Assembly (NCBI RefSeq): GCF_027484505.1
Contig: NZ_JAIXSV010000007.1
Coordinates: forward strand, 1 to 38,269
Reading direction: 5' to 3'
DNA: 38,269 nucleotides
Source: Asticcacaulis sp.
GTDB taxonomy: Bacteria > Pseudomonadota > Alphaproteobacteria > Caulobacterales > Caulobacteraceae
Below are positions 1,817 through 38,269 of the stretch, piece by piece; the first letter of the stretch is position 1, and every line of letters starts with the position of its first letter. The notes under the pieces were generated by a model. The model saw only the letters and a program-made list of their open reading frames with translations. It was not told the DNA's origin and ran no database searches. A program made the translations under genes and the position numbers.

Positions 1817-1818
1817 GA

Positions 1819-5453: not shown

Positions 5454-5497
5454 ATGCGCCGCATACGGAAGTCCGTTTGCCAGACATCGTAACTCAG

Positions 5498-5529
5498 GAA
5501 GGTCCAAATCCAAAATAATCGGGACCTTC
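5498..5529 (+). other. Hairpin between anti-sigma and receptor genes
   Basis: GAAGGTCC (5498-5505) pairs with GGACCTTC (5522-5529) around a 16-base AT-rich loop, in the 120-base gap before the receptor. No T-run follows (the next bases are AATAATAAT), so it is not a standard terminator. It may act as a processing or stability element that separates low sigma/anti-sigma expression from high receptor expression, or it may lie at a receptor promoter. Function inferred. Confidence 0.4.
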
Positions 5530-5573
5530 AATAATAATGCGCACCACGGGGCGCTTCTACAGGGAAAATTCTG

Positions 5574-8585: not shown

Positions 8586-8594
8586 TAAAATAAA

Positions 8595-8622
8595 GCGGCC
8601 ACTGGCACCCGTCGGTGGCCGC
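8595..8622 (+). other. Intercistronic hairpin after the receptor gene
   Basis: GCGGCCAC (8595-8602) pairs with GTGGCCGC (8615-8622), in the 54 bases between receptor and esterase. It is followed only by CTTTAC, too weak for a full terminator, and then by the AGGAG ribosome site of the esterase. It could reduce read-through or protect the receptor message 3' end, giving more receptor than esterase. Confidence 0.45.
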
Positions 8623-8639
8623 CTTTACAGGAGTAAACC

Positions 8640-9599: not shown

Positions 9600-9605
9600 G
9601 GTCTC

Positions 9606-14680: not shown

Positions 14681-14690
14681 GTGTATCCTT

Positions 14691-17278: not shown

Positions 17279-17288
17279 GACCACGACC

Positions 17289-17732: not shown

Positions 17733-17735
17733 GTT

Positions 17736-18440: not shown

Positions 18441-19957
18441 TCCGTCTCCTCCTCAAAGGTCGCCAGAGGCAGCGTCGCCGCCGTCGGCAACCAGACACGC
18501 ATACAGGCCCCTGTGCCGTCGGGTGGGTCTATAGCCTCGATACGCCCGCCGTAAGAGGCCACGATCTCGCGGCAGATGTAAAGTCCCAGACCCGTGCCGG
18601 CAATCTTGCGATCGCCTTCTACGGCACGGTAAAACTTGGTAAAAACCGGCTCACGCAGAGGCGGCGGAATGCCCCCCCCCTCATCATCGACATCAATGTC
18701 AACACCGTCCGAAGTGACGCGGGCATCAATGGTGATCTCGCCTTCGGGTGGGCCGTATTTAATGGCGTTTTCGATCAGGTTCAGCAGGACAAGGTCAAAC
18801 AGCGAAGCATTGAGGTTCAGAAGCGGAAACCCCGCTTCGACATTTACGCGAAACTTTTGCCGGCCGATCATAGGGCGCAGGGTGCGCAAGACCCCTGAGA
18901 TGGCGTCGCGAATGTGCAGGGGCTCACTGCGTGGCCGCACACCGGCCTCAAGGCGGCTGATCTCGACCAGATTGACCACATAGCGGTTCAGCCTCAGGGC
19001 TTCGGTCAGTCCATCATTGACGATCTCCCGCGCGTCGGTGTCCACACGGCCCTCCAGCGCCTCCAGCGCGCCGACTATGCCGACCAGCGGCGTTTTGAAG
19101 TCGTGCGATAATGAGGACAGCATGGCACTCATGAAGCGCTCGCGGTCGGCCTGACGCACCTGTTGTTCGTGGGCTTCGGTCAGGGCGGCCCGGCTGAGGG
19201 CACTGGCCACCTGCGCGGCCAGGGTCGGCAGCAGGCTGGGGGGGAAGCGTTCGACCGGAAACGGCGCATGATCTTGCGGTGTAAAGACCAGCACCCCCAG
19301 CCTCTTTTCGCCGTCGATCAGGGGCAGGATCAGGCGCGGATCGTGCGGCGCCAGCACCTGACCGGCCCCCGCAGATGCGCCTTCCTGCGCCGCTTCGAAC
19401 AAGAGCGGGTCATCGACGGGTACATCCTTGTACCAGATCTGACAGGGCACGGTGGTCAGGGCACTCAGGCAGGCTTCGCTGGCCGCCTGCACCTGCGCGA
19501 CGGTGGTTTTGCCGACAAGGTCCTGATTGAGTTGATAAAGCCCTCTCAATACGTTTTCGCGTGCCTGACTTTCGCCGGTGATGCGGCGCAGGCGCGTCGT
19601 CAGAGCGCTGACCACAAGCGTAACGATGAGCAGCACGACGATCTTGGCCACCGCCTGCGGGTTGGTCAGGTCGAAGGTCCAGAAGGGCGGCAGCAGGACC
19701 AGATTGTAGGTGATGACGCTGAGCGCCACCGTCACCAGCGCCAGCCGCAGATCGAGAAAGATGGCCGCCGCCAGAACGGGCAGGACAAACAGGATGCTCA
19801 ATGCCTCAGGCGAGGGAAAGCCGGACTGCATCAGGATGTAACTGATGCAGGCGGCCGCAAAGACCATGACAAGGCTCAGCAGCCCTTCCTGCCACAGGGC
19901 AGGCTGGCCCCGTAACACCGGCAAGGGGGGAGTGTCCAGAAACGGAGGCAGACGCAT
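18437..19957 (-). CDS. KdpD-like sensor kinase lacking the N-terminal KdpD/Usp domains
   Basis: A 506-residue kinase. It has four membrane helices in the DUF4118 arrangement (about 25-45, 52-70, 71-92, 104-122), a GAF-like domain (about 140-255), HisKA with SSLSHDFKTPLVGIVGALEAL (phospho-His 285) and HATPase_c (about 390-500, NLIENAIKYG, DDEGGGI, GTGLGLYI). Full KdpD is about 900 residues and begins with a cytoplasmic KdpD/UspA region that senses K+ and c-di-AMP; that half is missing. The start fits a complete membrane protein, so this is a natural short form, not a broken gene. A run of nine Cs (18672-18680) encodes the GGG of the nucleotide-binding G1 box. The putative ligand is unknown; K+ or turgor is a guess from the family. 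Confidence 0.9.
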   Translation of the reverse strand: MRLPPFLDTPPLPVLRGQPALWQEGLLSLVMVFAAACISYILMQSGFPSPEALSILFVLPVLAAAIFLDLRLALVTVALSVITYNLVLLPPFWTFDLTNPQAVAKIVVLLIVTLVVSALTTRLRRITGESQARENVLRGLYQLNQDLVGKTTVAQVQAASEACLSALTTVPCQIWYKDVPVDDPLLFEAAQEGASAGAGQVLAPHDPRLILPLIDGEKRLGVLVFTPQDHAPFPVERFPPSLLPTLAAQVASALSRAALTEAHEQQVRQADRERFMSAMLSSLSHDFKTPLVGIVGALEALEGRVDTDAREIVNDGLTEALRLNRYVVNLVEISRLEAGVRPRSEPLHIRDAISGVLRTLRPMIGRQKFRVNVEAGFPLLNLNASLFDLVLLNLIENAIKYGPPEGEITIDARVTSDGVDIDVDDEGGGIPPPLREPVFTKFYRAVEGDRKIAGTGLGLYICREIVASYGGRIEAIDPPDGTGACMRVWLPTAATLPLATFEEETE

Positions 19958-23837: not shown

Positions 23838-25793
23838 TCAGGGCCAATAGACCAGCTTTGGGGCCTCAGTGATAAACACATCGAGTACGCCGTCGGCGAT
23901 CCTGATGGGGCCTTCGGGGCGCGTAGCACCGGGTATGGTGCGCAGTTTTGAGGCCTCGGCCGCCAGGCCTTGCGCCGCCGCGAAGCGATCCGCGGCCGTT
24001 TGGGCATCGGCGGCCTCAAGCCCCTCAACGGTCAGGCGCAGAGCCTTACCCCACAAGGCGGTAGCCGTCAGCCACGGCGCGGCTTCTTCGACAAAGCCTT
24101 TATCCGTAACCCCAGTGCGGATGCGGTCGGGCGCATTGGTGAGATCATCGGCCCATTGCGACAGGGCGCTCAGCGCCGCCTGACGCTCTGTCATATCGGA
24201 ACCCGCCAGCGCATCGCGCACGCGGTTGATGGCGGCCCTCAGTTGCGGGGCTTGCGCCTGCCACGGCTGATTGCCAAAGGTGGGTGCCAGATGCTGCGTA
24301 TCGAAAAAGGTCAGAAGCGCCTGCGTCACCTGCGGATCATTCCCGGCCAGATCACGCGCCGCCGCCCGCCAGGTACGTTCGGCGTCATAGGCCTGATCAT
24401 TCCACGCAAAGGCCACCAGCCCCGTCACCGCCGGGCGACTGGCCACCTCCTGATTCATCGGGTTGGAGACGATGCCGCTCAGCTCCGCCGACAGGCCGGC
24501 CTCACGCCGCGCATAAGGTGCCATCAGAAGACGACCGGCGGATTCGCCAAAATCATTGACCGGATAATTGTCCCACAACAGCGTCTTGCGCCCGAAAGCC
24601 TTGGTGGCATTGCGCGCATCGGCGACCGAAATCGACGGCGGCACGGTATCGGTCCCCGTCCACTGGATCACCACGCGTGGATCAAGCGCCGCGGCCAGAG
24701 CGGTCTTATAGGGCGAGACCTTGGCATCGTAATATTCCGTCGGCACCATGATCAGTTCGCCATGCCCGCTGGCGGCCAGATCGGCCTGCACGGCGTTCAG
24801 GAGGCTGGCCTGCGCCTTCGCCGCCGCCTCTTCACCCGAAGGTCCAAAGGCCGCTTCATCGGCCGCACAGTTCCATTTTTTATACTCGATATCATCGAGC
24901 GCCACGTAGAAACTGCGCACACCAACGCCGCGCAGGGCCGCGAACTTGGCACGAATATGCGCCAGATCGGTCGGGTCGCTGTAGCAGATGGACGGCCCCG
25001 GTGAGACGGCATACACGAAGTTGACATGCTGCCGGTTGGCCTGCGCCACGAGGCTGCCAAGGTCTTTTAACGTCTCCGCCGGATAGGGCTCGCGCCACTT
25101 GTCGCGCGCATAGACGTCATCCTTGGGGCTGTAGATATAGGTGTTGGCCTTCAGGCCCGACAGGAATTCGATGTGGGCGGCACGCTGGGCCATGCTCCAC
25201 GGCTTGCCGTAAAAGCCTTCGATGGTGCCGCGCACCGGCATGGACGGATAGTCACTGATCGTCAGCGCCGGCAGGCGGCCCTGCGCCACAATCTGCCGGA
25301 GACTCTGGGCCGCGTAATAGAGGCCGTCGTTGTCGGCACCCGCCAGCACGATCAGCGCCCCGGAAGCCTGCTGGCGCGTCGTCAGTAGATAGGATTCGGG
25401 ACGTGTGGGGGCCGCTGCGCCCGTCACGCTGAGCGCCGCCTTGACCTCAGCGTCGTTGACCGTGCCGATCACCGCATAGTCGCCCGCAAAGCGCTTCGGC
25501 AGGCGCTTAACCACGCGAACGGTCTCCACTCCCGCAGCCGTCAGGACCCGGCGCACCAATGCCTCCGTTTCGGCATCGACCTTATCACCGCGCACCAGCA
25601 GCAGCGACGTCCCCAGCTTGAGGTCCGGTCCGGTCAAGGTCAGGGACTGTGGCGTGGGATAGATCGCCGGTGCCGTGGCCACCGGTTGCGCCTGCGCGGT
25701 CACCCCTACCGTACACAGTATGGGCGCGCTGACGGCGCACACAAACCAGCGTAAGGCCAGCCAGCGCGAATGACGGGTTGACTTCGATCCCAT
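23838..25793 (-). CDS. GH84 beta-N-acetylglucosaminidase (O-GlcNAcase type)
   Basis: A 651-residue exported GH84 enzyme that removes beta-linked GlcNAc by substrate-assisted catalysis. Sec signal at about 1-36 (ends AQAQ). A GH20b-type N-terminal domain covers about 40-180 and the catalytic barrel about 185-480, starting RGTIEGFYGKPWS, the family hallmark. The neighbouring Asp pair DD in FYVALDDIEYK (about 300-301) matches the polarising and acid Asp residues of O-GlcNAcases and hyaluronidase-like members. A helical C-terminus follows. I chose the ATG at 25793 (AAGGA seven bases upstream) over a TTG further out. In a bacterium without O-GlcNAc it likely acts on GlcNAc exposed on glycoproteins, mucins or N-glycans. 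Upstream lies an inverted repeat that may bind the GntR regulator. Confidence 0.93.
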   Translation of the reverse strand: MGSKSTRHSRWLALRWFVCAVSAPILCTVGVTAQAQPVATAPAIYPTPQSLTLTGPDLKLGTSLLLVRGDKVDAETEALVRRVLTAAGVETVRVVKRLPKRFAGDYAVIGTVNDAEVKAALSVTGAAAPTRPESYLLTTRQQASGALIVLAGADNDGLYYAAQSLRQIVAQGRLPALTISDYPSMPVRGTIEGFYGKPWSMAQRAAHIEFLSGLKANTYIYSPKDDVYARDKWREPYPAETLKDLGSLVAQANRQHVNFVYAVSPGPSICYSDPTDLAHIRAKFAALRGVGVRSFYVALDDIEYKKWNCAADEAAFGPSGEEAAAKAQASLLNAVQADLAASGHGELIMVPTEYYDAKVSPYKTALAAALDPRVVIQWTGTDTVPPSISVADARNATKAFGRKTLLWDNYPVNDFGESAGRLLMAPYARREAGLSAELSGIVSNPMNQEVASRPAVTGLVAFAWNDQAYDAERTWRAAARDLAGNDPQVTQALLTFFDTQHLAPTFGNQPWQAQAPQLRAAINRVRDALAGSDMTERQAALSALSQWADDLTNAPDRIRTGVTDKGFVEEAAPWLTATALWGKALRLTVEGLEAADAQTAADRFAAAQGLAAEASKLRTIPGATRPEGPIRIADGVLDVFITEAPKLVYWP

Positions 25794-25824
25794 AGTCAGG
25801 TCCTTCAAAGGTAATGTAGAGGTT

Positions 25825-25845
25825 CTATATAGGTATTGGATATAG
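25825..25845 (-). promoter_or_regulatory. Inverted repeat / promoter region upstream of GH84
   Basis: CTATAT and ATATAG are perfect inverted arms spaced by nine bases (AGGTATTGG). On the minus strand the same stretch offers a TATATAG -10-like element, 32 bases before the GH84 ATG. The site may be an operator for the adjacent GntR regulator, since family members bind A/T-rich palindromes, but it does not fully match a known GlcNAc-regulator motif. The rest of 25794-26019 shows no gene. Confidence 0.4.
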
Positions 25846-26019
25846 GCGAAAATTGCGCCTGTCCATAGCCTGCACCGTCACAATCCGGCATTCGCGCGCG
25901 AAGATGCGTCTATCCTACCCTCCCAGCGAAGGGCACAGCCGAACGCAAGGCGGCGGCGATTCGGAGCCACTGCCGGATCACGCTCAGAAACAAGAGAGGT
26001 TTGGGATCAGAAGGCCGGA

Positions 26020-26763
26020 TCAGCCCAGTTCGGCGATCACGTCGTAGGCTTCACCGTGGTAATAACACTGGCTGAATTCGACGGCCGTACCGTTGGACAG
26101 GAAGCCGCGGCGTTCGATAAACAGACCGCATTCCCCCGTATGTACGCCGAGCAATTCCGAATGTGCCTCGCTGAGAGGCGCGGCGCGCAGGCGTTGCAGG
26201 GCGCGCACCGGGCGACTGCCCGCCGCGGCCATGGCTTCGTAGAGCGATTCCTGCACCACATCGACCGAGGGCAGGAACTGCGCCGGGACGACAACGAACT
26301 CCAGACAGACGCGCACGCCGTCGGCGCAGCGAATGCGGTGAAAGCGGTGGACCAGCGACCCCGGCGACAGACCGAGCGCTAGCGCCTCTTCGGGCGTGGT
26401 CATGCTGGTGGTCTTTTTCAGCCAGATGCTGGACGGTTTATAGCCGCGTGAGCGGATGTCCTCGGAAAACGAGGTAAGAATGGCAAAATTCTTCTCAACC
26501 CGCGTAATCGACGGCATGGACACATAGGTGCCCGACCCCCGCGTGCGCGTCAGAAGTCCTTCTTCGACCAGCCCTTCGACGGCTTTACGCACGGTGATGC
26601 GCGACACGCCATAAAGCACGCATAACTCACGCTCAGGCGCCAGCGCCGCCCCCGGCTTCAGCTTCCCCCCCGTGATCTCGTCGCGGATGGCATTGCGTAT
26701 AAGCAGGTAGGCGTGGCCGCCATCATCTTTCAGAAAGGCAGAGCGCAGAGCTGACTCGTTCAT
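26020..26763 (-). CDS. GntR-family regulator with UTRA domain
   Basis: A 247-residue repressor of the HutC/NagR subgroup. Winged helix-turn-helix at about 17-83 (HAYLLIRNAIRDEITGGKLKPG, PERELCVLYGVSRITVRKAVEGL, LLTRTRGSGTYV), UTRA effector domain at about 97-240 (SFSEDIRSRGYKPSS, a central strand LVHRFHRIRCADGVRVCLE, a final EFSQCYYHGEAYDV). Members such as NagR, NagQ and DasR sense amino-sugar phosphates (GlcNAc-6-P). The position between GH84 and GH29, in a locus built around GlcNAc-containing glycans, supports that effector here; it is inferred. The gene is transcribed away from the fucosidase gene, so the 373-base gap (26764-27136) holds both promoters. Start ATG 26763; ribosome site weak (GGATG). 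Confidence 0.9.
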   Translation of the reverse strand: MNESALRSAFLKDDGGHAYLLIRNAIRDEITGGKLKPGAALAPERELCVLYGVSRITVRKAVEGLVEEGLLTRTRGSGTYVSMPSITRVEKNFAILTSFSEDIRSRGYKPSSIWLKKTTSMTTPEEALALGLSPGSLVHRFHRIRCADGVRVCLEFVVVPAQFLPSVDVVQESLYEAMAAAGSRPVRALQRLRAAPLSEAHSELLGVHTGECGLFIERRGFLSNGTAVEFSQCYYHGEAYDVIAELG

Positions 26764-26840
26764 GTCACATCCAGTCGTTTCCTACCCATTTCATGTGGGT
26801 CTTCTGGCTTTCAGTCAATTAGAAGTTTGCATTTTAAGTC

Positions 26841-26881
26841 TTTGCGCGTTGTCCCCACGCGCAAAATAAAGATCGTATACG
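26841..26881. promoter_or_regulatory. Palindromes between gntR and fucosidase, candidate operators
   Basis: Two palindromes lie close together: TTTGCGCGT (26841-26849) with ACGCGCAAA (26857-26865), and CGTATACG (26874-26881). GntR-family operators commonly contain GT-N-AC type half-sites, and GTATAC fits. Either or both could mediate autoregulation of gntR and control of the fucosidase gene. The 373-base gap holds nothing else I can identify, apart from a near-direct repeat CCAATTATGA(A)CC at 26951-26962 and 27107-27119. Confidence 0.4.
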
Positions 26882-27136
26882 GTAGCGATATCAATGGCAG
26901 CCGGAACGGACAATACATATTAAATACATTTGCTTGCCAAAATCCTAAGGCCAATTATGACCGAAATCCCTGCGCCCGCCCCCCTGATCTAACCCGCCTG
27001 TGCGCCCGCTGGCCATACGAATGCCTGTGATTTCAGCATTAAAAAGCAAAATGGGAAGCGCCTGACTTTAAGGCTTGCAATCAATCCCGGCTGAATTAGG
27101 GTGTTACCAATTATGAACCAAAGAGGCAAATTGGCC

Positions 27137-29218
27137 ATGATGATGGATCGTCGCACCCTGTCCCTGTCCGTTTTCGCTGGTCTGGTCGGCGGCCCGGCCC
27201 TGGCCCGCGCCCCCAAAGGCCCCGCCCCCTTCGGCGCGACGCCGTCGGTGCGTCAGTACGACTGGCAACGGCTCGAAACCTACGGCTTCATGCACTACAC
27301 CATGAACGCTTTTACGGACCGCGAATGGGGCTATGGCGATGAGCCGGTCAGCCTGTTCAACCCGACCGATTTCAGCGCCGATCAGATCGTCCTGGCCGCG
27401 AAGGGTGGCGGTCTGAAAGGCATAATCCTGACGGCCAAGCACCATGACGGCTTTTGCCTGTGGCCCAGCCGCTATACCGAGCATTCGGTCAAGTTCAGCC
27501 CGTACAAGAACGGCAAGGGCGACATTGTCGGCGAAATGGCCGAAGCCTGTCGCAAGCATGGTCTGAAGTTCGGCGTCTATCTGTCGCCATGGGACCGCAA
27601 CCACGCGGAATATGGCCGCCCGGCCTATGTCGAATACTATCACAACCAGCTCGAAGAACTGACCACGCAGTACGGCCCACTGTTTGAGGTGTGGTTCGAC
27701 GGGGCCAATGGCGGTGACGGCTATTACGGCGGCGCGCGCGAACGGCGCAAGATCGACGCCCTCACCTATTACGGCTGGGACACCGTGCGCGCCATCGTGC
27801 GCAAAAACCAGCCGCACGCCGTCATGTTTGCCGATGAGCATATGGATGTGCGCTGGGTCGGCAATGAGCATGGTCAGGCCGGTGACCCCTGCTGGCCCAC
27901 GGTCGATGAAACCCCCTACACCATGGCCAAGGGCAATGCCGGTGTGCGTGGCGGCAACATCTGGAACCCGGCGGAAACCAATACCTCGATCCGGCCCGGC
28001 TGGTTCTGGCACGCGGACGAAAGCCCGCGCACGCCCGCCAATCTGACGCGCGTATACTTCGAGTCGGTGGGGCGCGGCACGACCCTGCTGCTGAACCTGG
28101 CCCCTGACCGCCGCGGCCGCGTGCCCGATGCCGATGTGGCCTCGCTCACAGGCTGGAAAGCCATTCTGGACAAGACCTTTGCCCGCAATCTGGCCACCGG
28201 AGCCAAGGTGACGGCCTCCTCGACCTATGGCGAGGGGTTCGGCCCGGCGCAGGCCCTGAAAGCCAATGGCTTCTGGGCCGCGCGCACCTCGGATAAGGCC
28301 GGGGCGTGGATTCGCTTTGACCTGCCCAAGGCGCAGACCTTTGACGTGATCCGTACCGCCGAAGACATCCGCAAGGGCGTGCGCGTCGATGATTTCGCCA
28401 TCGACATCCTTGAAAACGGCCGCTGGCGGACCCTGCAAACCCACACCTATATCGGTTATAAGCGCCTGACGCGTCTGTCGGCCCCCGTGACGACGCGTGC
28501 GGTGCGTATCCGCATCCTCAAGGCCGCCGCCTCGCCCATTCTGGGCGATTTCGGCCTGTTCCTGATGCCGTCAGTGCTGGAAGAACCGGTCATCAAACGC
28601 GACCGCGCCGGTCTGGTCAGCCTCAGTGCCGCCGAAACCGATGTGCGCCTGTTCTACACCCTGGACGGCAGCGCGCCGACAACCGCTTCGACGCCGTTCA
28701 GCGCCCCCTTCCCCCTGCCCGAAGGCGGTCAGGTGCGGGCCGTGGCCTTCAGCCCGGCGCGTAAGGTGCTGAGCGCGGCCTCGGTGGTGTCGTTCGATGT
28801 CGCCCCGGTCGGCTGGCGCATGGTCTCGGCCAGCAGCGATACGCCGAACGCGCTGCTCGACGGCAAGGGCTTTATCGGCCGCAAGGGCCAGCCCGCCGAA
28901 CTGATCCTTGATCTGGGCAAGGTCTATGACCTCAAGGGCTTTACCCTGACGCCCGGCGTGCAGGACATCTATCTGGACGTGAACACGGTGGCCCAGATGG
29001 GCGCACCGGCGGGTTACGTCGCCTCTGTCAGCCTTGACGGCCAAACCTTTGCACCCGCAGGCGAAGGCGAATTCTCCAACATCGCCAATAGCCGCAGCGA
29101 ACAGCGCATCCGCTTCGATGCGCCGCATAAGGGGCGTTACCTGAAACTGGTTCTGCCGCGCGCTGTGCAGGACAAGCCGACCGTAGCCTTCAGCGGCGTT
29201 GGGATTATCACGCGGTAA
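27137..29218 (+). CDS. GH29 alpha-L-fucosidase with C-terminal carbohydrate-binding domains
   Basis: A 693-residue GH29 enzyme. The N-terminus MMMDRRTLSLSVFAG has a twin-arginine-type signal (ends ALARAP). The catalytic barrel covers about 35-370, with YGFMHYTMNAFTDREWG, the HHDGFCLW motif (H102-H103) and nucleophile Asp 188 in FEVWFDGANG; acid/base is not assignable by eye. Beyond it are an F5/8 type C-like domain (about 370-470), a chitobiase-like domain (VRLFYTLDGSAPTTAST, about 485-545) and a second F5/8-like domain (about 570-693). I chose the triple ATG from 27137, since longer frames would place the RR too far inside. AGAGG lies ten bases upstream. Removes alpha-linked fucose, here probably alpha-1,3/1,4 or core fucose. 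Confidence 0.93.
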   Translation: MMMDRRTLSLSVFAGLVGGPALARAPKGPAPFGATPSVRQYDWQRLETYGFMHYTMNAFTDREWGYGDEPVSLFNPTDFSADQIVLAAKGGGLKGIILTAKHHDGFCLWPSRYTEHSVKFSPYKNGKGDIVGEMAEACRKHGLKFGVYLSPWDRNHAEYGRPAYVEYYHNQLEELTTQYGPLFEVWFDGANGGDGYYGGARERRKIDALTYYGWDTVRAIVRKNQPHAVMFADEHMDVRWVGNEHGQAGDPCWPTVDETPYTMAKGNAGVRGGNIWNPAETNTSIRPGWFWHADESPRTPANLTRVYFESVGRGTTLLLNLAPDRRGRVPDADVASLTGWKAILDKTFARNLATGAKVTASSTYGEGFGPAQALKANGFWAARTSDKAGAWIRFDLPKAQTFDVIRTAEDIRKGVRVDDFAIDILENGRWRTLQTHTYIGYKRLTRLSAPVTTRAVRIRILKAAASPILGDFGLFLMPSVLEEPVIKRDRAGLVSLSAAETDVRLFYTLDGSAPTTASTPFSAPFPLPEGGQVRAVAFSPARKVLSAASVVSFDVAPVGWRMVSASSDTPNALLDGKGFIGRKGQPAELILDLGKVYDLKGFTLTPGVQDIYLDVNTVAQMGAPAGYVASVSLDGQTFAPAGEGEFSNIANSRSEQRIRFDAPHKGRYLKLVLPRAVQDKPTVAFSGVGIITR

Positions 29219-29235
29219 CAAACGGCGCAGGCGGC

Positions 29236-31506
29236 TTATCGCGGATAAAGCCAGACCTGCGCCACCTGCCGCCCGCGCCCAGAGCCGCCCAGCCCTTCCG
29301 GGCGAAACCACTTGAGGCTGAGGCGGCCTGTGGCCGTGACCTCTTGCGGCAGGTCCAGCTCTACCGTCTCCGGATTGCTGCGGCGGGCGCGGGCCGTGTG
29401 CAGGGTCGTCGTGTCATTGGCGATCAGGGTCAGCGGCAGGGCATAGTCTTCTCCCGCATACACCACTTTCAGCCGATAGGCGCGCGTGCGGTCGAGCCCG
29501 GCATAGCGCAACTCCAGCGGGGTTTCGTACAGCGCCTCGGCATAGGTGATCCACGCCAGCCGCCAGCCATCATCCGGCGTGCGGTCGGCAATGCTCTCTA
29601 TGGCCCCCGCCATGCGCTGCGGATCGTCGGCCCAGTCGGCCCCACGCACCAGATGCGGTGCCGCCTGCGGATCACCCAGATCATCGTAAAACCCGCCGGG
29701 TGGCGGTGTATCCCGGCGTAAAAGCGCCGCCAGACGTTCAGCGCGCGCGGGTTCGGGCAGGGCCTCGATCTCAGCCATCTGCCGGCTCAGCCACACCCGG
29801 TCGTTCAGCGACACCTCAAGCCGGTCGAGATTGGCCCCCCGCTCCCAGTTGGACGCCCCATAAAGCCGCACGCTCAGTTGCAGACCGATGCTCGTATAGA
29901 GCCGTCCGGCCCGTGTCTGAATCTCTGTGCGCAGTGCCTGTGTGTTCCCGTCGTCAGGGGGCGCCAAAGCACGGCGTGCCTCCTGAAAATTGTTTTTAGA
30001 GAGGGCTTTGTAGGCATCTTCTTCACGTTGCGTCTCCGCCACAGCGCGCCGCTGCACATAGGCGTCATAGGCGGCGCGATAGGCCAGCATGTCGTACCGC
30101 CAATTATCCCGATGCGGCAGGGTCCTCAGCGTCATCAGGGTGCGCGGGATGTCGCGGTTCAGACGCACCGGCCCACGCCAGTTGCGCTCCAAACCTTCCA
30201 GCACCGCCCCGAACCGCGCATCCCCCAGAAAATAGCGCCCATAGTCCGCAGCAATCGTCGCGGATGTTTGCGCGCGATCCGTGCCGAACCCCGCCCACAA
30301 CATCTTGTTCACGTCATCCGTCACCCCTTCGGAATAGGTGACAAAGCCTTCAAAATCACCAGCAAAATGGCGATAGATATGGCCTTGGGCCTGCTGTTGC
30401 GGGTTGATGGGTTCGCGCCCTTCGGTCAGGGCAAAGGCGGGATCGAAGCCCGGCACCGGGAACTGCGCGTGCAGGGTGTGGGCGATGTCGGGATAGAAAA
30501 GCACCTTGTACCGCGCCGGAATGCGGGCCCGCTGCACCGACACGGTGTCGCGCGACTGCGGCCCGACAAAGACACCCGTCAACCATGGATTTTCTTCTGC
30601 CATCAGGGCGTAGAAGCGCTCATACTGCGCGCGGTCAAAGCCCTGCGCCGACACCCACACCGTCGCCTTGGGGTGATAGCGACGCAGGATCGCCGCTTCG
30701 TCGCGGATCAGCGGGAACAGAATATCCGGCGGCGTATGGCCGGGGTCGCCGCCGGGGACGAACAGGCTGCTGATATGCGGCGTGGCGCGCACCAGCGCCT
30801 CAAAGCGCGTCAGTTCCGCCGCCCTTTGTGTCGGGTCGCCATAGTCGGCCATCATCTGCGGGTAATAGAGGTGAAAATCGACGCCATAGCGCTCCGTAAG
30901 CCGCGACACCCCGATCAGGGTGTTCAGCGCAGGTGCCGGAAACAGCGGGCTTTCGGCGGCGTCGTCTGAAATGGGCGCGATCCATTGCAGGCCATTGGTG
31001 CCAAACACGATAAGGTCGCGCAGGTGGCGCTCAAACATAGGCAGCGTAAAGGCGTCATAGCTGTTGTTCTTGAAACGGTAGCCGATCTGATGCGCGCGAA
31101 TGGCCTTGTCAGGCACCACATAGAGCGGCAGGCCGCGCACCCGCCCCTGCGCCGCCTTGCGCAGGACATGGCCCATACCGAACATCAGGCCACGATCATC
31201 GTCACCGGCGATGATCAGCCAGTTGTCTTTGGAAAACAGCGCATAGGCTTCGGGTCGTGCGGTCGGCAAGGTGCGGCTCCAGTCCTGCCACGCAACGCGC
31301 ACCCTGGGTGGTAAAAGCGCCGCTACCTGCGACCGCTGCGCCAGCACCACCTGCCCTTTTAAGGCACCCAGCACCGGCTCCTCCCGGAACCACGCCGTCG
31401 TGGCTTGGGCCTGCGGGCTGGCGTCCGGCGCGGTGATCAGGTTGGCCGCAACCGCCTGTGACGCCGACAGGCACAGCCACACACAGAAGCACAGGAAGCG
31501 TCGCAT
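29236..31506 (-). CDS. Putative glycoside hydrolase of unassigned family
   Basis: A 756-residue exported protein, signal peptide at about 1-20 (ends AVA-A). It has the build of GH20/GH67/GH115-type enzymes: an N-terminal domain at about 25-145 that looks like a GH20b-like fold (LFSKDNWLIIAGDDDRGLMFGMGHVL), a TIM-barrel-like region at about 150-440 (YRFKNNSYDAFTLPMFERHL, FVPGGDPGHTPPDILFPLI, FYPDIAHT, ALTEGREPINP, VTYSEGVTDDVNKMLW), a helical region to about 620 and a C-terminal beta-sandwich. The sequence does not match a family I can name. Acidic clusters at GGDPGH and YSEGVTDD are candidate catalytic sites. The ATG at 31506 overlaps the GH92 stop (TGATG), showing coupling; it is the last gene of the run and meets the fucosidase gene tail to tail, 17 bases away. 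Confidence 0.72.
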   Translation of the reverse strand: MRRFLCFCVWLCLSASQAVAANLITAPDASPQAQATTAWFREEPVLGALKGQVVLAQRSQVAALLPPRVRVAWQDWSRTLPTARPEAYALFSKDNWLIIAGDDDRGLMFGMGHVLRKAAQGRVRGLPLYVVPDKAIRAHQIGYRFKNNSYDAFTLPMFERHLRDLIVFGTNGLQWIAPISDDAAESPLFPAPALNTLIGVSRLTERYGVDFHLYYPQMMADYGDPTQRAAELTRFEALVRATPHISSLFVPGGDPGHTPPDILFPLIRDEAAILRRYHPKATVWVSAQGFDRAQYERFYALMAEENPWLTGVFVGPQSRDTVSVQRARIPARYKVLFYPDIAHTLHAQFPVPGFDPAFALTEGREPINPQQQAQGHIYRHFAGDFEGFVTYSEGVTDDVNKMLWAGFGTDRAQTSATIAADYGRYFLGDARFGAVLEGLERNWRGPVRLNRDIPRTLMTLRTLPHRDNWRYDMLAYRAAYDAYVQRRAVAETQREEDAYKALSKNNFQEARRALAPPDDGNTQALRTEIQTRAGRLYTSIGLQLSVRLYGASNWERGANLDRLEVSLNDRVWLSRQMAEIEALPEPARAERLAALLRRDTPPPGGFYDDLGDPQAAPHLVRGADWADDPQRMAGAIESIADRTPDDGWRLAWITYAEALYETPLELRYAGLDRTRAYRLKVVYAGEDYALPLTLIANDTTTLHTARARRSNPETVELDLPQEVTATGRLSLKWFRPEGLGGSGRGRQVAQVWLYPR

Positions 31507-33794
31507 CACACGAAGGACGGCGGGCGGTCAGCCAGCCGCGCCCCGAAGGCCGGGTTGGGCGTGGCGCTCATCAGGAAGCGGAGTTCGCCGCCACGCATCA
31601 GGGTGTCGTGGGCAATCCACGACCGGCTCCACGCCTTACCGTTCAGGCGCACGCCGCTGACATAGACCTTATCCGGCCCGTTACCATCGGCGACGATGCT
31701 CAGATGCCGCCCGTTACCGAGCGCAAGGCGGGCGCGGTTGACCAGAGGCGAGCCGAAGACATAGACGCCGCTGACCGGATCAACCGTGTACAGGCCCAGC
31801 GCGCTCAGTACGTACCAGGCGCTCATCTGGCCGCAATCCTCATTGCCCTCCAGCCCGTTGGGCTCAGCGCGGTACATGGCCTTCATCAGCATCCGCACGC
31901 GCGACTGGGTTTTCGGCAAGGCCCCGGCATAGGCATAGAGATAGGCGACGTGGTGGCTGGGCTCATTGCCGTGCGCGTACTGCCCGACCAGCCCGCTGAT
32001 GTCGTCCAGCGAGCCGTGATCGAGGTCAGACGGGGCATTAAACAGCGCATCCAGCTTGGCCTCAAAGGCCTTCTCGCCGCCGAACATCTGCATATAGCCA
32101 TAGAGGTCGTGCTGATTGAGGAAGGTCGCCTGCCAGCCATTGGTTTCCGTATAGTCGCGCCAGCGCTTCTGATCGTGGCCCAAAGACTGCGGGAAATAGG
32201 GCGTCACCCAGGAACCGTCGGCCTTTTTACCGCGCATGAAGTGAATGTACGAGTCAAAGAGATTGCGATAATTTCTTGAACGTTCACGCAATTTGCGTGC
32301 ATCCTCATGCGCGCCGACCGCTGCCGCCAGCTTGGAGGCGCACCAGTCGCTATAGGCAAATTCAAGCGTGCGCGACACGGATTCATCGACCTTGTCCGCC
32401 GGGATATAGCCCAACTGGCGATAGAGGCCAAAGCCGTGCACATCGTCATCGAAGGCGCGCTTGCGGATCACCTTATAGGCGGCCTTATAGTCTACGCCGG
32501 GCACGCCCTTAACGCAGGCTTCGGCCAGAACGGCGGCGCTGTGGTAACCGATCATGGTGTCGGTTTCGCGCCCCTGAAGCGGCCAGATGGGCGCGCCTGC
32601 CGGGCTTTCCTGCCCCATGCGCGCCAGACCGCCGATCATGCCGGGCAGGCGTGGTCCCTGCGTCAGGGTGTAGAGCGGATGCGCGGCGCGATAGGTGTCC
32701 CACAGGCTGTAGGTCGAATAATTTTCTTCGCCGGGTTTCAGGCTATGCACCTGATTGTCCATGCCGCGATAGCGACGATCGACGTCCGAAAACAGGGTCG
32801 GCGCCAGCAGGCTGTGGTAATGGGCCGTATAGAAGACCTTGCGGTCATTGGGATCGCTGAGGTCCACGCGGATGCGCGACAGTTCGCCCTGCCACGCCAG
32901 ATGCGCCGCCCGCCGCGTGCCTTCAAAATCAAAGCCCGGCTGTTCGGCCTCAAGGTTTCTGAGCGCGCCGTCGATATCGACCGCTGAAATCCCGACCTTG
33001 ACCAGCAGCGGGGCCGCACCCGCATCATCAAAATGCAGGGCGCATTTCAGCTTGCCACCGGCAACCTCCGTACCACTGATCGGGGCGTCGTTCTGATAAA
33101 GTTCGGCCCGGCTGAACGGCCGCGACAGTTTCAGGGCGAAGAAGATCCAGCGCCCACCCGCCCACATGAAGACCTGACGCCCCCCCACCAGCGTGTCATT
33201 GCCAATCAGGCGCAGGCTGGTGTTGTCGAGTTTGGTCGCGGGCGATTTTTCCCACCAGTTGCGCTGCCCGTGGGCCCAGTCGATCAAAAGGTGCCCCGCC
33301 TCGCCTGTCGGAAAGACATAGCGGTGCAGGCCGGTGCGCAAGGTGGCCGTCAGTTCGGCGCGCACGCGGCTGTCGGTCAGGGTGACGGCGTAGTAGCCGG
33401 GGCTGGCCACCTCATCGGCGTAGCGCGAGCGGTAGCTACCTTCGATCTGACCCGGTTCGCCCGGATTGAGCACCACCGGCCCGGTGCGCGGCGTCACCAG
33501 ACAGTCGAGCATGTCCGCGCAGCCCGTCCCCGACAGGTGGGTGTGCGAAAAGCCCATGATCGAGCCGTCCTTGACGTGATAGCCGGAGCAGGAATCCCAT
33601 CCATTATTGCTGGTGTCCGGCGACAACTGCACCATACCGAACGGCAGGGTCGCCCCCGGATAGGTGTGGCCGTGACCGCCCGTGCCGATAAAGGGATCGA
33701 CATGGGCGCACAGGTCGTCTTCAGCGGCCAGAGACTGAACCGGCAGGACGGAGGCCACCGAGGCGGCCCCCAGAAGCGAACGGCGATTGATCAT
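31506..33794 (-). CDS. GH92 exo-alpha-mannosidase
   Basis: A 762-residue GH92 enzyme, which removes alpha-1,2/1,3/1,4-linked mannose with Ca2+ help. Twin-arginine signal MINRRSLLGAASVASVLP. The N-terminal half has the family's opening VDPFIGTGGHGHTYPGATLPFGMVQLSPDT and GFSHTHLSGTGC. The catalytic half contains GNEDCGQMSAWYVLSALGLY (about 650), whose acidic residues are the family hallmark, after barrel sequences such as YSLWDTYRAAHPLYTLTQGP. I chose the ATG at 33794, 15 bases inside the frame, because GGAG lies nine bases upstream and it gives an ideal Tat signal. It is coupled to the unassigned hydrolase at its 3' end and lies 45 bases after GH125. Confidence 0.95.
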   Translation of the reverse strand: MINRRSLLGAASVASVLPVQSLAAEDDLCAHVDPFIGTGGHGHTYPGATLPFGMVQLSPDTSNNGWDSCSGYHVKDGSIMGFSHTHLSGTGCADMLDCLVTPRTGPVVLNPGEPGQIEGSYRSRYADEVASPGYYAVTLTDSRVRAELTATLRTGLHRYVFPTGEAGHLLIDWAHGQRNWWEKSPATKLDNTSLRLIGNDTLVGGRQVFMWAGGRWIFFALKLSRPFSRAELYQNDAPISGTEVAGGKLKCALHFDDAGAAPLLVKVGISAVDIDGALRNLEAEQPGFDFEGTRRAAHLAWQGELSRIRVDLSDPNDRKVFYTAHYHSLLAPTLFSDVDRRYRGMDNQVHSLKPGEENYSTYSLWDTYRAAHPLYTLTQGPRLPGMIGGLARMGQESPAGAPIWPLQGRETDTMIGYHSAAVLAEACVKGVPGVDYKAAYKVIRKRAFDDDVHGFGLYRQLGYIPADKVDESVSRTLEFAYSDWCASKLAAAVGAHEDARKLRERSRNYRNLFDSYIHFMRGKKADGSWVTPYFPQSLGHDQKRWRDYTETNGWQATFLNQHDLYGYMQMFGGEKAFEAKLDALFNAPSDLDHGSLDDISGLVGQYAHGNEPSHHVAYLYAYAGALPKTQSRVRMLMKAMYRAEPNGLEGNEDCGQMSAWYVLSALGLYTVDPVSGVYVFGSPLVNRARLALGNGRHLSIVADGNGPDKVYVSGVRLNGKAWSRSWIAHDTLMRGGELRFLMSATPNPAFGARLADRPPSFV

Positions 33795-33839
33795 CGAAAG
33801 GCACTCCATAGTCGCGGGTTATCGCGGCAAATCACAAGG

Positions 33840-35270
33840 TCACAGAAGGTCGGGGGCGGTCCGCATCAGGGTCAGCACCGTCTCTCCAAACAGGCTGTTG
33901 GCCCAGGCAAACCATGAGCGGGTGAAATGGCTGGCGTCATCCTTATGCACCGACTCATTGACGAAGCCGCGCGGGGCCGAGGCCCGCAAAATCCCCGCAA
34001 GGCAGGCGCGTTGCTCCGCCTTGTCCTGCGTGGTCAGTATCTGCATCATCAGGGCGATGGGCCACACCGTGTCCGGCTCCGAATGCGGGCTGCCGACGCC
34101 GGACAGCACCTTGCCCTCAAAATAATAGGGGTTGCGGCGGCTCAACACCGCGCGGCGGGTGCGCTGATAGAGCGGGTCGTCAATACGACAGGCCCCCAGA
34201 TAGGGCAGGCTGAGCAGGCTCGGCACATTGGCGTCGTCCATGAACAGGCCATTGCCGAAGCCATCGACCTCATAGGCCCACATGTCGCCACCGTCCGACG
34301 TACTGAGGCGACCATAGGCGTTCAGGGCGTCACTGACCTCCTGCGCCAGCGCCAGACAGGACTGTGCAAATGCGGCCCCCAGCCCCGCGGGTTCCGCCAA
34401 TTGCGCCAGTTGCCGCAGGCTCACGACCGCGAAATGATTGGCCGGGATGAGGAAGGGATAGAGGCAGGCATCGTCGGACGGACGGAAGCCGGAATGGATC
34501 AAACCGACCTTGCGCGTCGGGGCCCCATAGCCGCGCGCCAGCGTCTCGGTGGGTTCGGACGCCGTGCGCTGAAAGCGATACGGCCCATTATTCTCTTTGC
34601 GCTGCTGTACGCGGAAGGTATCGACCACCGTGTGCATGGCAGCGCGCCAGGTGTCGTCAAAGGCGCTGACGTCCCCCGTCTGCCGCCAGTAAAGATAGGA
34701 CAGCCGCACCGGATAGCACAGCGAGTCGATTTCCCACTTGCGCTCGGCCACGCCCGGCTTCATGTCGGTAAAGTCGGTCTGCGACCACGACAGGTTGGTG
34801 CGCGCCTTGGGGTCGTGCATATAGGCATTGGCATAGGGGTCGATCAGGATGCAGCGCGATTGCCGATGGATCAGGCCAACAAACAGGCGTTGCAGCGCCT
34901 TGTCCTCCGTCACCAGCGGCAGATAGGGCGTCACCTGCGCCGACGAATCGCGCAGCCAGAGAGCCTTGATATCGCCGGTAATGACGAAGGTGTCGGGCTT
35001 GCCATCCACCTCGCCCAGCTCAACCGTCGTATCGAGCGTGTTCGGGTAGGCGTTTTCAAACAGCCGCGCCAGAGCCGGATTACGGATAGCGCGGCGGGCC
35101 TTGGCGATGGTCGCTTCGACCGCCGCCGAGCGGAAACCACGCTGTTGCGGCGGCAGCCGCAGGCCGGACGCCACCTGAGGCGACATGGGCGGAATCTCGG
35201 CCACAGCGGGCGTCGCCAATGCCGCGAAGCTGGTTGCCCCCAAAGCGGTGAGGAATTGTCTGCGCTGCAT
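33840..35270 (-). CDS. GH125 exo-alpha-1,6-mannosidase
   Basis: A 476-residue GH125 enzyme (formerly DUF1237) specific for terminal alpha-1,6-mannose. The start [25 protein letters not shown] is a twin-arginine signal. Family motifs: [22 protein letters not shown] near 95-118, [31 protein letters not shown], and the C-terminal [20 protein letters not shown] containing the conserved acidic residues. AAAGGA lies eight bases upstream and overlaps the stop of the GH35 gene, which is only five bases away, so the two are translated from one message. Together with GH92 it could trim the mannose core of N-glycans: GH92 takes alpha-1,3 and 1,2 branches, GH125 the alpha-1,6 arm. Confidence 0.95.
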
Positions 35271-35275
35271 CGCCC

Positions 35276-37117
35276 CTATCCTTTTACCAGACCCGGCAGG
35301 TCCCAGATCTGCGATCCCGAACCGGCCAGCGAGCGTTCGCCCTGATCGTGGAGATCAAGCACCACCACCTCATTGACACCGATCTTAAGATAGGGGGCCG
35401 GGACGAAGACAGCGCGCTGCGGCCCGACAGACCAGTAGCGGCCCAGATTGTGCCCGTTGACCCAGACATAGCCCTTACCCCAGCCCCGCAGGTCCAGGAA
35501 GGTGAAGCCCGCTTCGGAGGTTTCAAACGTGCCACGATAGAAGGCCGGGCCTTCGACGCGCTGACGTTTGAAGCGCAAGGCGCTCAGATCATCGAGAGGT
35601 ATGCCCTGATGCGCCCAGCCGGTGAGGGTCTTACCGTTTAGGGTGACCGGCCCGATCAGGCCTTTCTGGTCCTTGCCGATCTGGTCACCATAGTTGATGT
35701 GGCCCATGGCGTCGATGAGCAACTCAAGCGTTTCACCGGCCTTAAGCGACACCTCAATCTCTGTCTCTTTCAGACGGCGATCCAGCGTCCCGACGCGCGC
35801 CTGTCCGGCGCTGACGAGGGCGTAGTCGCGCACCTCAGCCGCTTTCAGATGGCCCGAAAGCGCGGTCTTGGCGGTGTGCCTGTAGAGCATCAAGCCATGG
35901 GGCAGGCCGATCTGCTCAAAGGTTTTCAGCTGGGGATGACTGACGCTTTTTGGGTAAAGCTGCGACAGCGGGGCCGTTTCGCGCAAGGTAAAGCGTTCAA
36001 TTTTGAGGGCCTTTTCCGGCGTCGGCAGAGGGGTGAAGCGCTCCGGCGGCAGGTAGCGACGGAACAGCTCCCGCGCCGCCTCGTATTTCGGCGTGACGCG
36101 CCCGGCCTCATCAAGCATGGCGTCGTAATCATAGCTCGAAATATCCGGCTGATAGCCGTGAGTTTTATGGAAATTGGCCCCGGCGTCAAAGGCAAACGAG
36201 GTGCCACCGTGCAGCATGTAGAAGGAGAAGCTGATGCGGTTATCGAGCATCCATTTCAAGCTTTCCATCAAAGGCGGGATTTCCATATTGGAGTGCATCT
36301 CACCGAAATGGTCGAACCAGCCGCCCCACAGTTCGGTACACATGCGCGGGCCCTTGGTCTTGAACTTGGCATAGCGCGCAAATTCACCCTCCGCCTTATC
36401 ATAGGTGCCAAAATTGATGCCGTTGAACAGCTCCGGCAAGGCGCCGTTTTCAATGACCGCCGCCCCATCGACCGTATAGAGCTGACCGCTGAATCCGGCG
36501 GCACGCACCTGATCGCGGACGGCGCGCATATAGTTGAGGTCGTTGCCATAGGAGCCGTATTCGTTTTCAACCTGCGTCATCAGAATCGGGCCGCCCTTGT
36601 CGATCTCAAGGTGCGCCACCTCCTGACCCAGCCGCTTCAGCCACTGCCCCGCCGGCCCCATATAGCGCGGGTCGAGCGAACGCGGGCGGATGTCCGGGTC
36701 ATTGAGAAACCACGCCGGATAGCCGCCATTATCCCATTCCGCACAGGCATAGGGGCCGGGCCGCAACAGGACATGCAGCCCCTCCTCCTGCGCCATCTTC
36801 ACCCAAGCGGCAACATCGAGATTGCCGCTGAAATCATAGACACCCGGCTTTTTCTCGTGCGCGCTCCAGAAGGTGTAGGTCGAAAGCGTGTTCAGCCCCA
36901 GTGCCTTCAGCTTGCGCAGACGGTCGCGCCATAGCTCGCGCGGGATGCGCGGATAGTGCATCTCACCCGCCATCAGGTGCAGAGGCTGCCCATCCAGCAG
37001 GAACTGGTCGTCCTTTATCGTAAAGCGCGACGGGGCCGCGCTGGCGTCACCGGCTGAAAAACCGAGCGTCACTGCCGAGGCGGCCAGCCCGCCGAGAATC
37101 TGTCTGCGATCAATCAT
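35276..37117 (-). CDS. GH35 beta-galactosidase
   Basis: A 613-residue GH35 enzyme that hydrolyses terminal beta-galactose. Tat signal [23 protein letters not shown]. The catalytic barrel has [39 protein letters not shown], the acid/base Glu in [10 protein letters not shown] (about 186) and the nucleophile Glu in [13 protein letters not shown] (about 262). C-terminal jelly-roll domains hold [18 protein letters not shown] and end [10 protein letters not shown] chose the ATG at 37117, ten bases after AAAGGA, rather than 37126, which is one base from it and gives a poorer signal. Nineteen bases separate it from GH3. GH35 enzymes in such loci often remove Lewis-a type beta-1,3-galactose. Confidence 0.95.
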
Positions 37118-37135
37118 GAGCGTCATATCCTTTGG

Positions 37136-38269
37136 TTATTTCGGTAGCGGCATCTGGCCGGTGATCGAGAAATCGGCGTTGAGGGTCGGGGCAAAGCCGG
37201 GCTGACCCCCACCGACCGACAGGCTGTAGGCCCCGGCCCGGATGGCGCGATCCCCCTCAAGCGTGACCGTGCTCAGGTCGCGCGGGTCAATGGTCATGAC
37301 GACCGTCCGGCTTTCACCCGCCTTGAGGCTGACGCGCGAGAAGGCCGCCAGTGAGGCATTGAGACCGAAGGCATCGGGCCGTTTGACATAAAGCTGCACC
37401 ACCTCATCACCCGAGCGTTGCCCGCTGTTGCGCACGCGCACGCTGACGCGCAGCGGCTGACCCGCCGTCAATGTGGACGTATCGAGTTTCAGATCGCTAT
37501 AGCTAAACTGCGTGTAGGACAGGCCGTGGCCGAACGGATAGAGCGGCTTGCCCTTGAAATAGCGATAGGTGCGCCCTTCCATGCGGTAGTCGATAAACGG
37601 CGGCAAATCCTGCACCGAACGGTAGAATGTCACGGGCAGGCGTCCGGAGGGGCTGGACTCGCCGGTCAGGGTGCGGGCAATGGCCGTGCCCCCCGCCTCG
37701 CCCGGATACCAGGCGGCCACCACGGCATCGGCGTGGGCATCGGCCCAGTTGAGCGCCACCGCTGAACCAGACATCAGCACCACGACCAACGGCTTACCCG
37801 TCGCCTTGACCGCCTTCAGCAGGTCCTCCTGCGTGCGCGGCAGGCCGAGGTCAGTGCGATCCCCGCGGTCAAAGCCCGGCACCAGAATTTGAAGTTCTTC
37901 GCCTTCGATGTCGGGCGAAAGGCCGACAAAGGCGACAATGGCGTCGGCGGCCTGCGCGGCCTTGACCGCCTCGTCGATCTGCGGCTGCGCCGGGGCGATC
38001 CATTGCAGGCGCACGCCCCAGTCGCCGCCTACATGGCGGTAATCAAGGCGCAGACGGCGCGCGGCGGCGCTGTCGAAGGTCAGTTCGGTTTCCAGCGACT
38101 TGCCGTCGCCCGTATCGACGATGACGGGCTGGTCATCGAGATAGAGGCGCACCTCATCGTGCTGGTTGCTCTCGCAGGACCAGCAGCGATCCACAAAGAC
38201 CTTAAGGCGATAGGTGCCTGCTGCCGGGGGCACGATCTGACCGCTCCAGCGGATGCTGTAAGGCCCGTC
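37136..38269 (-). CDS. GH3 beta-glycosidase with PA14 domain, C-terminal part (cut by window edge)
   Basis: The 3' 377 codons of a GH3 enzyme; the N-terminal catalytic barrel with the nucleophile Asp lies beyond 38269. At the window edge the PA14 domain is visible (DGPYSIRWSGQIVPPAAGTY, then VRLYLDDQPVIVD). Then comes the (alpha/beta) sandwich domain, with VGLSPDIEGEELQI containing the acid/base Glu and GFDRGDRTDLGLPRTQEDLL, followed by VVLMSGSAVALNWA, AAWYPGEAGG, YPFGHGLSYTQF and a fibronectin-III-like end. The EGEEL and GFxRGDRTxLxLP pattern is typical of the beta-xylosidase/beta-glucosidase subgroup with PA14. In this locus a beta-1,2-xylosidase acting on plant N-glycans is a plausible role (inference). 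Confidence 0.93.
   Translation of the reverse strand, partial: DGPYSIRWSGQIVPPAAGTYRLKVFVDRCWSCESNQHDEVRLYLDDQPVIVDTGDGKSLETELTFDSAAARRLRLDYRHVGGDWGVRLQWIAPAQPQIDEAVKAAQAADAIVAFVGLSPDIEGEELQILVPGFDRGDRTDLGLPRTQEDLLKAVKATGKPLVVVLMSGSAVALNWADAHADAVVAAWYPGEAGGTAIARTLTGESSPSGRLPVTFYRSVQDLPPFIDYRMEGRTYRYFKGKPLYPFGHGLSYTQFSYSDLKLDTSTLTAGQPLRVSVRVRNSGQRSGDEVVQLYVKRPDAFGLNASLAAFSRVSLKAGESRTVVMTIDPRDLSTVTLEGDRAIRAGAYSLSVGGGQPGFAPTLNADFSITGQMPLPK

What the first reader, a model, noticed from the sequence alone, without database searches (positions are those of the whole stretch)
23838..38269. Candidate complex N-glycan degradation locus in a Caulobacterales-type genome
Sequence shows GH84, GH29, GH92, GH125, GH35, GH3 (PA14) and an unassigned glycosidase-like protein in one 14-kb block, with five of them in one tightly spaced minus-strand run and a GntR/UTRA regulator in the middle. 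Established: GH92 and GH125 remove alpha-mannose branches, GH29 fucose, GH35 galactose, GH3 members xylose, GH84 GlcNAc. This set matches the sugars of complex plant-type N-glycans. It resembles the Xanthomonas campestris nix cluster, which was shown to take apart a plant N-glycan with GH92, GH3 and GH125 acting in order. That this organism uses it for N-glycans is inference; no GH18/GH85 endo-enzyme or GH2 beta-mannosidase is visible here.
Basis: partly seen in the sequence, partly recalled or inferred. Interest (0 to 1): 0.75.

Follow-up and report, generated by a model that had tools for sequence, protein, structure and literature searches.

The report
Asticcacaulis locus for digesting plant N-glycans
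A bacterium of the genus Asticcacaulis carries a set of enzymes that looks built to take apart, sugar by sugar, the N-linked sugar trees of plant proteins, and one conserved protein of the set belongs to no family in the libraries searched and may be a new kind of sugar-cutting enzyme.

Summary
The genome is an Asticcacaulis. The window is a whole contig, cut inside GH3. Sister species carry the block with GH85 endoglycosidase and glycosylasparaginase-type (AGA) genes. PNGase A-type genes (a class that tolerates plant core alpha-1,3-fucose) occur in 3 of 25 Asticcacaulis genomes, each within about 25 kb of the unassigned gene. The GH92 is closest in the PDB to 7ZGM, a plant-N-glycan alpha-1,3-mannosidase. 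It works like the Xanthomonas nix cluster but is a variant. The unassigned 757-aa protein matches no Pfam family, is predicted (pLDDT 90) to have the GH20/67/84/115 type of fold, and in its clade occurs with GH125 in 13 of 14 rows (one untested). I think it is an undescribed glycosidase family of unknown linkage. This genome shows no GH85 or PNGase A, so how the glycan is freed is open.

The parts
23838..25808 (-). GH84 beta-N-acetylglucosaminidase with GH20b-type N-terminal domain; signal-like leader
   Evidence: Pfam NAGidase 2.9e-103; nearest PDB 6pv5 (nagJ-type), Asp-Asp pair kept as LDDIEY (that this is the catalytic pair is recalled); leader by eye
26020..26763 (-). GntR/UTRA transcriptional regulator, probably the local repressor (inference)
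   Evidence: Pfam UTRA 1.5e-30, GntR 3.3e-17; same position in relatives
26764..27100 (.). GntR-GH29 intergenic region with a stretch (ATACATATTAAATACA) kept in 6 of 6 aligned loci; possible promoter or operator
   Evidence: alignment of 6 loci; function not tested
27101..29218 (+). GH29 alpha-L-fucosidase, alpha-1,3/4 type by similarity, with F5/8C and CHB_HEX_C domains; RR-type leader
   Evidence: PDB list 8ayr, 5k9h, 4zrx, 3eyp, then the alpha-1,3/4-fucosidase 3ues; leader by eye
29236..31509 (-). Unassigned exported protein, candidate new glycosidase family: N-terminal GH20b/GH67N-like domain, TIM barrel, helical part, C-terminal beta part; start possibly the ATG at 31506
   Evidence: no Pfam; model pLDDT 90.1; fold neighbours GH115/GH84/GH20/GH67; invariant D255, D341, E366, D398, D399, K402 in 24 rows
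31506..33809 (-). GH92 alpha-mannosidase, closest in PDB to the plant N-glycan alpha-1,3-mannosidase 7ZGM; RR-type leader
   Evidence: control: another GH92 of this genome prefers 6f8z
33840..35270 (-). GH125 exo-alpha-1,6-mannosidase; RR-type leader
   Evidence: Pfam 2.6e-159; PDB best 3p2c, list includes the alpha-1,6-mannosidases 6rqk and 5m7i
35276..37126 (-). GH35 beta-galactosidase; RR-type leader
   Evidence: Pfam 7.7e-106; PDB 8fa5
37136..38269 (-). GH3, C-terminal half with PA14, cut by the contig end; beta-xylosidase-like. N-half on contig C231:3-1646
   Evidence: full-length G020 orthologue nearest PDB beta-xylosidases, beta-glucosidases not far behind

Best explanation
The locus is a periplasmic N-glycan utilisation system that works like nix, most likely aimed at plant (core alpha-1,3-fucosylated, beta-1,2-xylosylated) N-glycans. 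A TonB-dependent receptor (on the adjoining contig) takes up glycopeptides or free N-glycans. Exported exo-enzymes then trim them: GH29 fucose, GH35 galactose, GH84 antennary GlcNAc, GH92 core alpha-1,3-mannose, GH3 beta-1,2-xylose, GH125 alpha-1,6-mannose, GH2 beta-mannose, and GH84 again on the chitobiose. A BadF-type kinase and a GntR/UTRA repressor would link it to GlcNAc catabolism. The conserved unassigned protein is an additional glycosidase of an undescribed family acting on the same glycan. Gene content, synteny and a predicted fold are shown; substrate, order of action, export and regulation are inferred.
For: Gene families confirmed. C231, joined by an exact 119-base overlap, gives the GH3 N-half, GH2, TBDR, halogenase-like, CutC and BadF kinase. 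The same operon is annotated in Asticcacaulis sp. DW145. GH85 is over cut-off in 7 of 61 genomes, all Asticcacaulis and all with GH125, in the locus in six (G003, G008, G017, G019, G023, G024). An AGA-type gene adjoins GH92 in seven sister genomes (the G024 gene used as query, and G003, G008, G015, G017, G019, G023 at 81-91%). PNGase A family in 3 of 25 Asticcacaulis genomes, about 3.3, 24 and 25 kb from the unassigned gene; also about 6 kb from it in Niveispirillum L018. GH92 nearest 7zgm at 1.3e-174, the plant N-glycan alpha-1,3-mannosidase. Full-length G020 GH3 nearest xylan 1,4-beta-xylosidase 7vc6, 1.4e-102. nagA, GntR and CutC lie within 20 kb of GH2-GH3-GH125-GH92-GH29 in Sphingomonas YK209.
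Against: No enzyme or growth data. This genome has no GH85 and no PNGase A, and no AGA in the part of the locus seen; its three other Asparaginase_2 matches lie on contigs C155 and C197. So release from protein or from Asn is unexplained; PNGase F-type, GH18 and GH20 were not searched genome-wide. Of six +1-subsite residues named for 7ZGM, three are kept (W178, W209, H530) and three differ (Y72 to S, E532 to Q, S533 to K; read by hand), so the GH92 linkage is open. Beta-glucosidases follow the beta-xylosidases in the GH3 list (6r5i 6.5e-95). The GH29 linkage is by similarity only. In G023 the GH3 and the GH2 each read in two pieces.
Confidence: 0.82

Rival explanations
1. The locus digests fungal or yeast alpha-mannan rather than N-glycans; GH92 and GH125 trim mannan side chains and backbone oligosaccharides.
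For: GH92 and GH125 serve alpha-mannan in Bacteroides, and a Salegentibacter GH76 gene is in an operon with GH92, GH2, GH125 and GH43 (passages of PMC10154615).
Against: No GH76 among the genes scanned in the window and on C231. GH35, GH29, a xylosidase-like GH3 and GH84 are not needed for mannan. Sister loci carry GH85 and AGA-type genes, and three sister genomes PNGase A-type genes.
Confidence: 0.06
2. The locus targets invertebrate, algal or high-mannose N-glycans rather than plant complex ones.
For: Core alpha-1,3-fucose also occurs in invertebrates (PMC4231336 passages); an alpha-1,3/4 GH29 and a GH35 would also serve other glycans.
Against: GH3 nearest beta-xylosidases and GH92 nearest 7ZGM point to xylosylated plant glycans.
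Confidence: 0.2
3. The unassigned protein is only a far-diverged GH84/GH20 beta-N-acetylhexosaminidase, not a new kind of enzyme.
Against: No catalytic-domain match in Pfam for any of 24 members. The loop after barrel strand 4 reads PxxDPG with one invariant acid, not the Asp-Asp (GH84) or Asp-Glu (GH20) pair (the pairs are recalled). GH115 is as close by fold and GH67 as close by profile (93%).
Confidence: 0.25
4. The unassigned protein is a structural or binding relative of glycosidases with no catalysis.
For: None direct; no catalytic pair can be assigned with certainty.
Against: Invariant acids D255, D341, D398 and D399 follow closely on barrel strands 4, 7 and 8, where active sites of TIM barrels lie (recalled).
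Confidence: 0.1

Closest known systems
Xanthomonas campestris nix N-glycan cluster (nixD-L plus TBDR)
   Same: TonB receptor with GH29 (NixE), GH35 (NixL) and, as recalled, GH3, GH125, GH92 and GH2; an asparaginase lies in the nix neighbourhood as AGA does in sister loci (PMC5700972 passages)
   Different: no GH18 (NixF) in what was examined, a GH84 instead; GntR/UTRA regulator inside; the extra unassigned protein; alphaproteobacterial; sister loci add GH85, some GH20, and PNGase A-type genes nearby
Bacteroides massiliensis plant N-glycan system (PNGase, GH92, GH3, GH29, GH2, GH20)
   Same: same kinds of activities; GH92 closest to B035DRAFT_03340 (7ZGM)
   Different: split over several loci with SusC/D pairs; galactose removed by GH2, not GH35; no homologue of the unassigned protein mentioned in the passages and section read
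GH84 / GH20 / GH67 / GH115 glycosidases (for the unassigned protein)
   Different: no Pfam match in the catalytic domain, only weak profile matches, and its own invariant motifs HQxGYR, PxxDPG, YPDIxH, YSxGxxDDVNK

Membership tests
nix-type N-glycan cluster | TonB-dependent receptor with the glycosidases | tested here: met
   C231:4520-7195, 97.9% to the G020 TBDR; Pfam
nix-type N-glycan cluster | GH92, GH3, GH125 and GH29 side by side | tested here: met
   (family letters of NixI-K recalled)
nix-type N-glycan cluster | GH35 (NixL) | tested here: met
   NixL as GH35
nix-type N-glycan cluster | GH2 beta-mannosidase (recalled as part of nix) | tested here: met
   C231:1595-4273, Ig_mannosidase and Mannosidase_ig domains
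nix-type N-glycan cluster | GH18 (NixF) | tested here: not met
   no GH18 among window proteins scanned or among the six genes identified on C231; rest of the genome not searched
nix-type N-glycan cluster | sequential activity on a plant N-glycopeptide | not testable with these tools
   needs enzymes
GH84 (for the unassigned protein) | match to the GH84 catalytic domain (PF07555) | tested here: not met
   no match at E 10, none of 24 members at 0.1
GH84 (for the unassigned protein) | adjacent Asp-Asp after barrel strand 4 (recalled) | tested here: not met
   PxxDPG, one invariant Asp in 24 rows; strand from the model, numbering mine
GH67 (for the unassigned protein) | match to the GH67 middle domain | tested here: not met
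   only the N-terminal GH67N domain, 5 of 24 members; hhalign 93% over 281 columns
GH115 (for the unassigned protein) | GH115 fold and sequence | tested here: inconclusive
GH20 (for the unassigned protein) | GH20 catalytic domain PF00728 | tested here: not met
   only the GH20b domain, 4 of 24 members

The most novel reading that the evidence does not exclude
The 757-aa protein founds an undescribed glycoside hydrolase family in the GH20/67/84/115 fold group. In its Alphaproteobacteria-Granulicella clade it is a dedicated step of core-fucosylated N-glycan breakdown, for example releasing the antenna or opening the fucosylated chitobiose. More distant members in Verrucomicrobiota, Bacteroidota and Clostridia act on other glycans.
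Probability: 0.42. Interest if true: 0.7.

Novelty: new variant of a known kind. Interest (0 to 1): 0.52.

Why it matters
The passages read here describe bacterial breakdown of plant N-glycans in one plant pathogen and in gut Bacteroides. A complete, syntenic system in Asticcacaulis, with sister genomes that add GH85, AGA and PNGase A-type genes, gives a natural comparison of ways to free and finish the glycan. It also points to a probable new enzyme family, and to alphaproteobacterial PNGase A-type and GH85 genes of possible use in the analysis of plant glycoproteins.

Tried and rejected
Rejected: galactomannan, xyloglucan or arabinogalactan as the target (sister genomes carry PNGase A-type, GH85 and AGA genes with it). 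Rejected: that no GH2 or TonB receptor belongs to the locus (found on C231). Considered and dropped: the unassigned protein as the missing endo-enzyme, because G015, G017, G019, G023 and G024 have both it and GH85. Against its being indispensable: G003, G008 and G022 have GH125 but lack it, and G003 and G008 have the locus with GH85 and AGA.

Led nowhere: Rfam (0 matches) and tRNA (0); PDB sequence search with the unassigned protein alone (0); a regulatory palindrome (only a conserved stretch). Papers on the unassigned family: 12 of 25 listed, listing only, none seen to name it. Asticcacaulis with N-glycan: one paper, on tomato root communities, listing only, no Asticcacaulis paper among the 10 listed of 323. 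The nix paper (Dupoiron 2015) is not held; I rely on passages of PMC5700972 and PMC10154615 and on recall. PMC10154630 passages were seen and not used. Three phylum-sample hits covered only the N-terminal domain and were not counted as members. In the VIA list a family not shown is not excluded. One GH85 match below the cut-off, in G029 of another genus, was not counted.

Counts dropped: L037 and L038 (fragments) were left out of alignment A1, which holds 24 of 26 possible rows (25 loci plus the window); A2 left out two more (L020, L031). PF01112 hits 55 of 61 genomes, so AGA was counted only by similarity to the in-locus gene. The third GH92 of this genome (C74) was not compared with the PDB.
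Full report
OBSERVATION. The window is the whole of contig C309 (38269 bases), so GH3 is cut. Titles of close matches place the genome in Asticcacaulis (inference from kinship). The five minus-strand genes GH3-GH35-GH125-GH92-unassigned are nearly contiguous. GH29, GH92, GH125 and GH35 begin with twin-arginine type leaders (DRRTLS, NRRSLL, QRRQFL, DRRQIL), and the unassigned protein and GH84 with signal-like leaders (read by eye), so export is likely.

WHAT LIES BEYOND THE CUT. A search of the same genome with the sister GH2 found C231:1595-4273 at 95% identity. The first 119 bases of C231 equal the last 119 of the window. C231 carries the GH3 N-half, a GH2 with Ig_mannosidase domains, a TonB receptor, a halogenase-like gene, CutC and a BadF-type kinase. 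From GH84 to the kinase the locus is about 25.1 kb. The same order stands annotated in Asticcacaulis sp. DW145 plasmid pASDW145_1, where the unassigned protein is 'hypothetical'.

SISTER LOCI. G006, G011 and G020 (unassigned protein 87-89% identical) have the window's arrangement with GH29, GH84, GH2, GH3, GH35, GH125 and GH92. G017, G019, G023 and G024 (58-62%) have GH29, a second GH29, GH2, GH3, GH35, GH125, GH92, an Asparaginase_2 (AGA-type) gene, the unassigned gene and GH85, with GH20 also in G024; in G023 the GH3 and GH2 each read in two pieces. In G019 GH29 and GH85 form one 1442-aa frame. G003 and G008 have the block with AGA and GH85 but no unassigned gene. Among 61 relatives GH125 is in 13, all Asticcacaulis. 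GH85 is over cut-off in 7, all among those 13; the window genome has none.

PNGASE. The PNGase A family is in 3 of 25 Asticcacaulis genomes (G015, G017, G023), all with the unassigned gene (Fisher p 0.05). In G015 it lies on the same contig as that gene (PNGase A frame 4043-5773, unassigned match from 9098), although there that gene is not beside GH125. In G017 and G023 it is about 24 and 25 kb away. Niveispirillum L018 also has it (Pfam 7.3e-53) about 6 kb from the unassigned gene, and L020 has a homologue. Almond PNGase A releases glycans with core alpha-1,3-fucose, as found in plants (PMC4231336, abstract and passages).

ENZYME DETAIL. The window GH92 is nearest in the PDB to 7zgm (1.3e-174), ahead of 6f8z (1.9e-159). 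[quoted passage not shown] As a control, one of the two other GH92 genes of this genome prefers 6f8z; the other was not compared. Mapping the +1 residues by hand keeps W178, W209 and H530 but not Y72, E532 or S533. The full-length GH3 of G020 is nearest to a xylan 1,4-beta-xylosidase (1.4e-102), with beta-glucosidases from 6.5e-95. The GH29 matches 8ayr best and, lower in the list, 3ues, an alpha-1,3/4-fucosidase. GH84 keeps its Asp pair.

DISTRIBUTION OF THE UNASSIGNED PROTEIN. It is in 10 of 61 relatives, all 10 with GH125 (Fisher p 3e-9 over 61, 1e-4 within the genus, not corrected for kinship). In a sample of 398 Pseudomonadota, full-length copies occur in 2 (own and G382); G382 has TBDR-GH20-GH2-GH3-GH125-GH92-unassigned-GH29. 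A tree of 29 rows gives a 14-row clade (100/100) of Alphaproteobacteria plus Granulicella. In Sphingomonas YK209 and G. tundricola the two genes are on different plasmids. Outside the clade, 14 neighbour genes of 8 loci scanned with Pfam showed no N-glycan family, and comparison with the locus proteins showed only a GH3 relative in L036 among the glycosidases; GH125 was not searched in those genomes.

READING. The bond-specific genes of sister genomes make Asn-linked glycans the target with high confidence. Plant type follows from the GH3, GH92 and PNGase A evidence and is less sure. It works like nix but has no GH18 in what was examined, so I call it a nix-like variant, not a member. How this species releases the glycan is unknown: plant free N-glycans (mentioned in PMC5700972) or an unsearched enzyme are possible.

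Noticed in passing
window 3938-10724: ECF sigma factor, FecR, a TonB-Xanth-Caul receptor, a BD-FAE esterase and a PemA-type pectinesterase in one plus-strand run: a separate, pectin-type uptake locus.
   Followed up: partly
window 13574-19957: Two-component genes in a row: kinase with LuxR-type regulator, CHASE3-PAS kinase, OmpR-type regulator with DUF4118 kinase.
   Followed up: no
L043:13630-17955: GH29 and GH85 read as one open frame of 1442 aa in G019, a possible fused fucosidase-endoglycosidase; in G023 and G024 they are neighbours.
   Followed up: partly
G023 locus, L045/L046, joined coordinates 29369-34616: The GH3 and the GH2 each read in two overlapping frames in G023: sequencing errors or decay, not decided.
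   Followed up: no
L095:1-22085: In Sphingomonas YK209 a homologue of the unassigned protein sits beside type I-E CRISPR and DISARM genes; the only glycosidase annotated in the stretch is a GH3 about 20 kb away.
   Followed up: no
L028:12041-14185: In Chitinophaga the homologue is followed by a 715-aa protein without any Pfam match, in a SusD-containing locus with phosphatase and phosphodiesterase genes.
   Followed up: no
L110:7537-9903, L049, L052, L094: A tryptophan-halogenase-like gene, and in most of these CutC, recur beside the N-glycan genes; CutC also lies beside GlcNAc genes in L114. The role of CutC there is unclear.
   Followed up: no
window 405-3576: ABC ATPase with an AAA-associated C-terminal domain next to a 585-aa protein with two permease-domain matches.
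   Followed up: no
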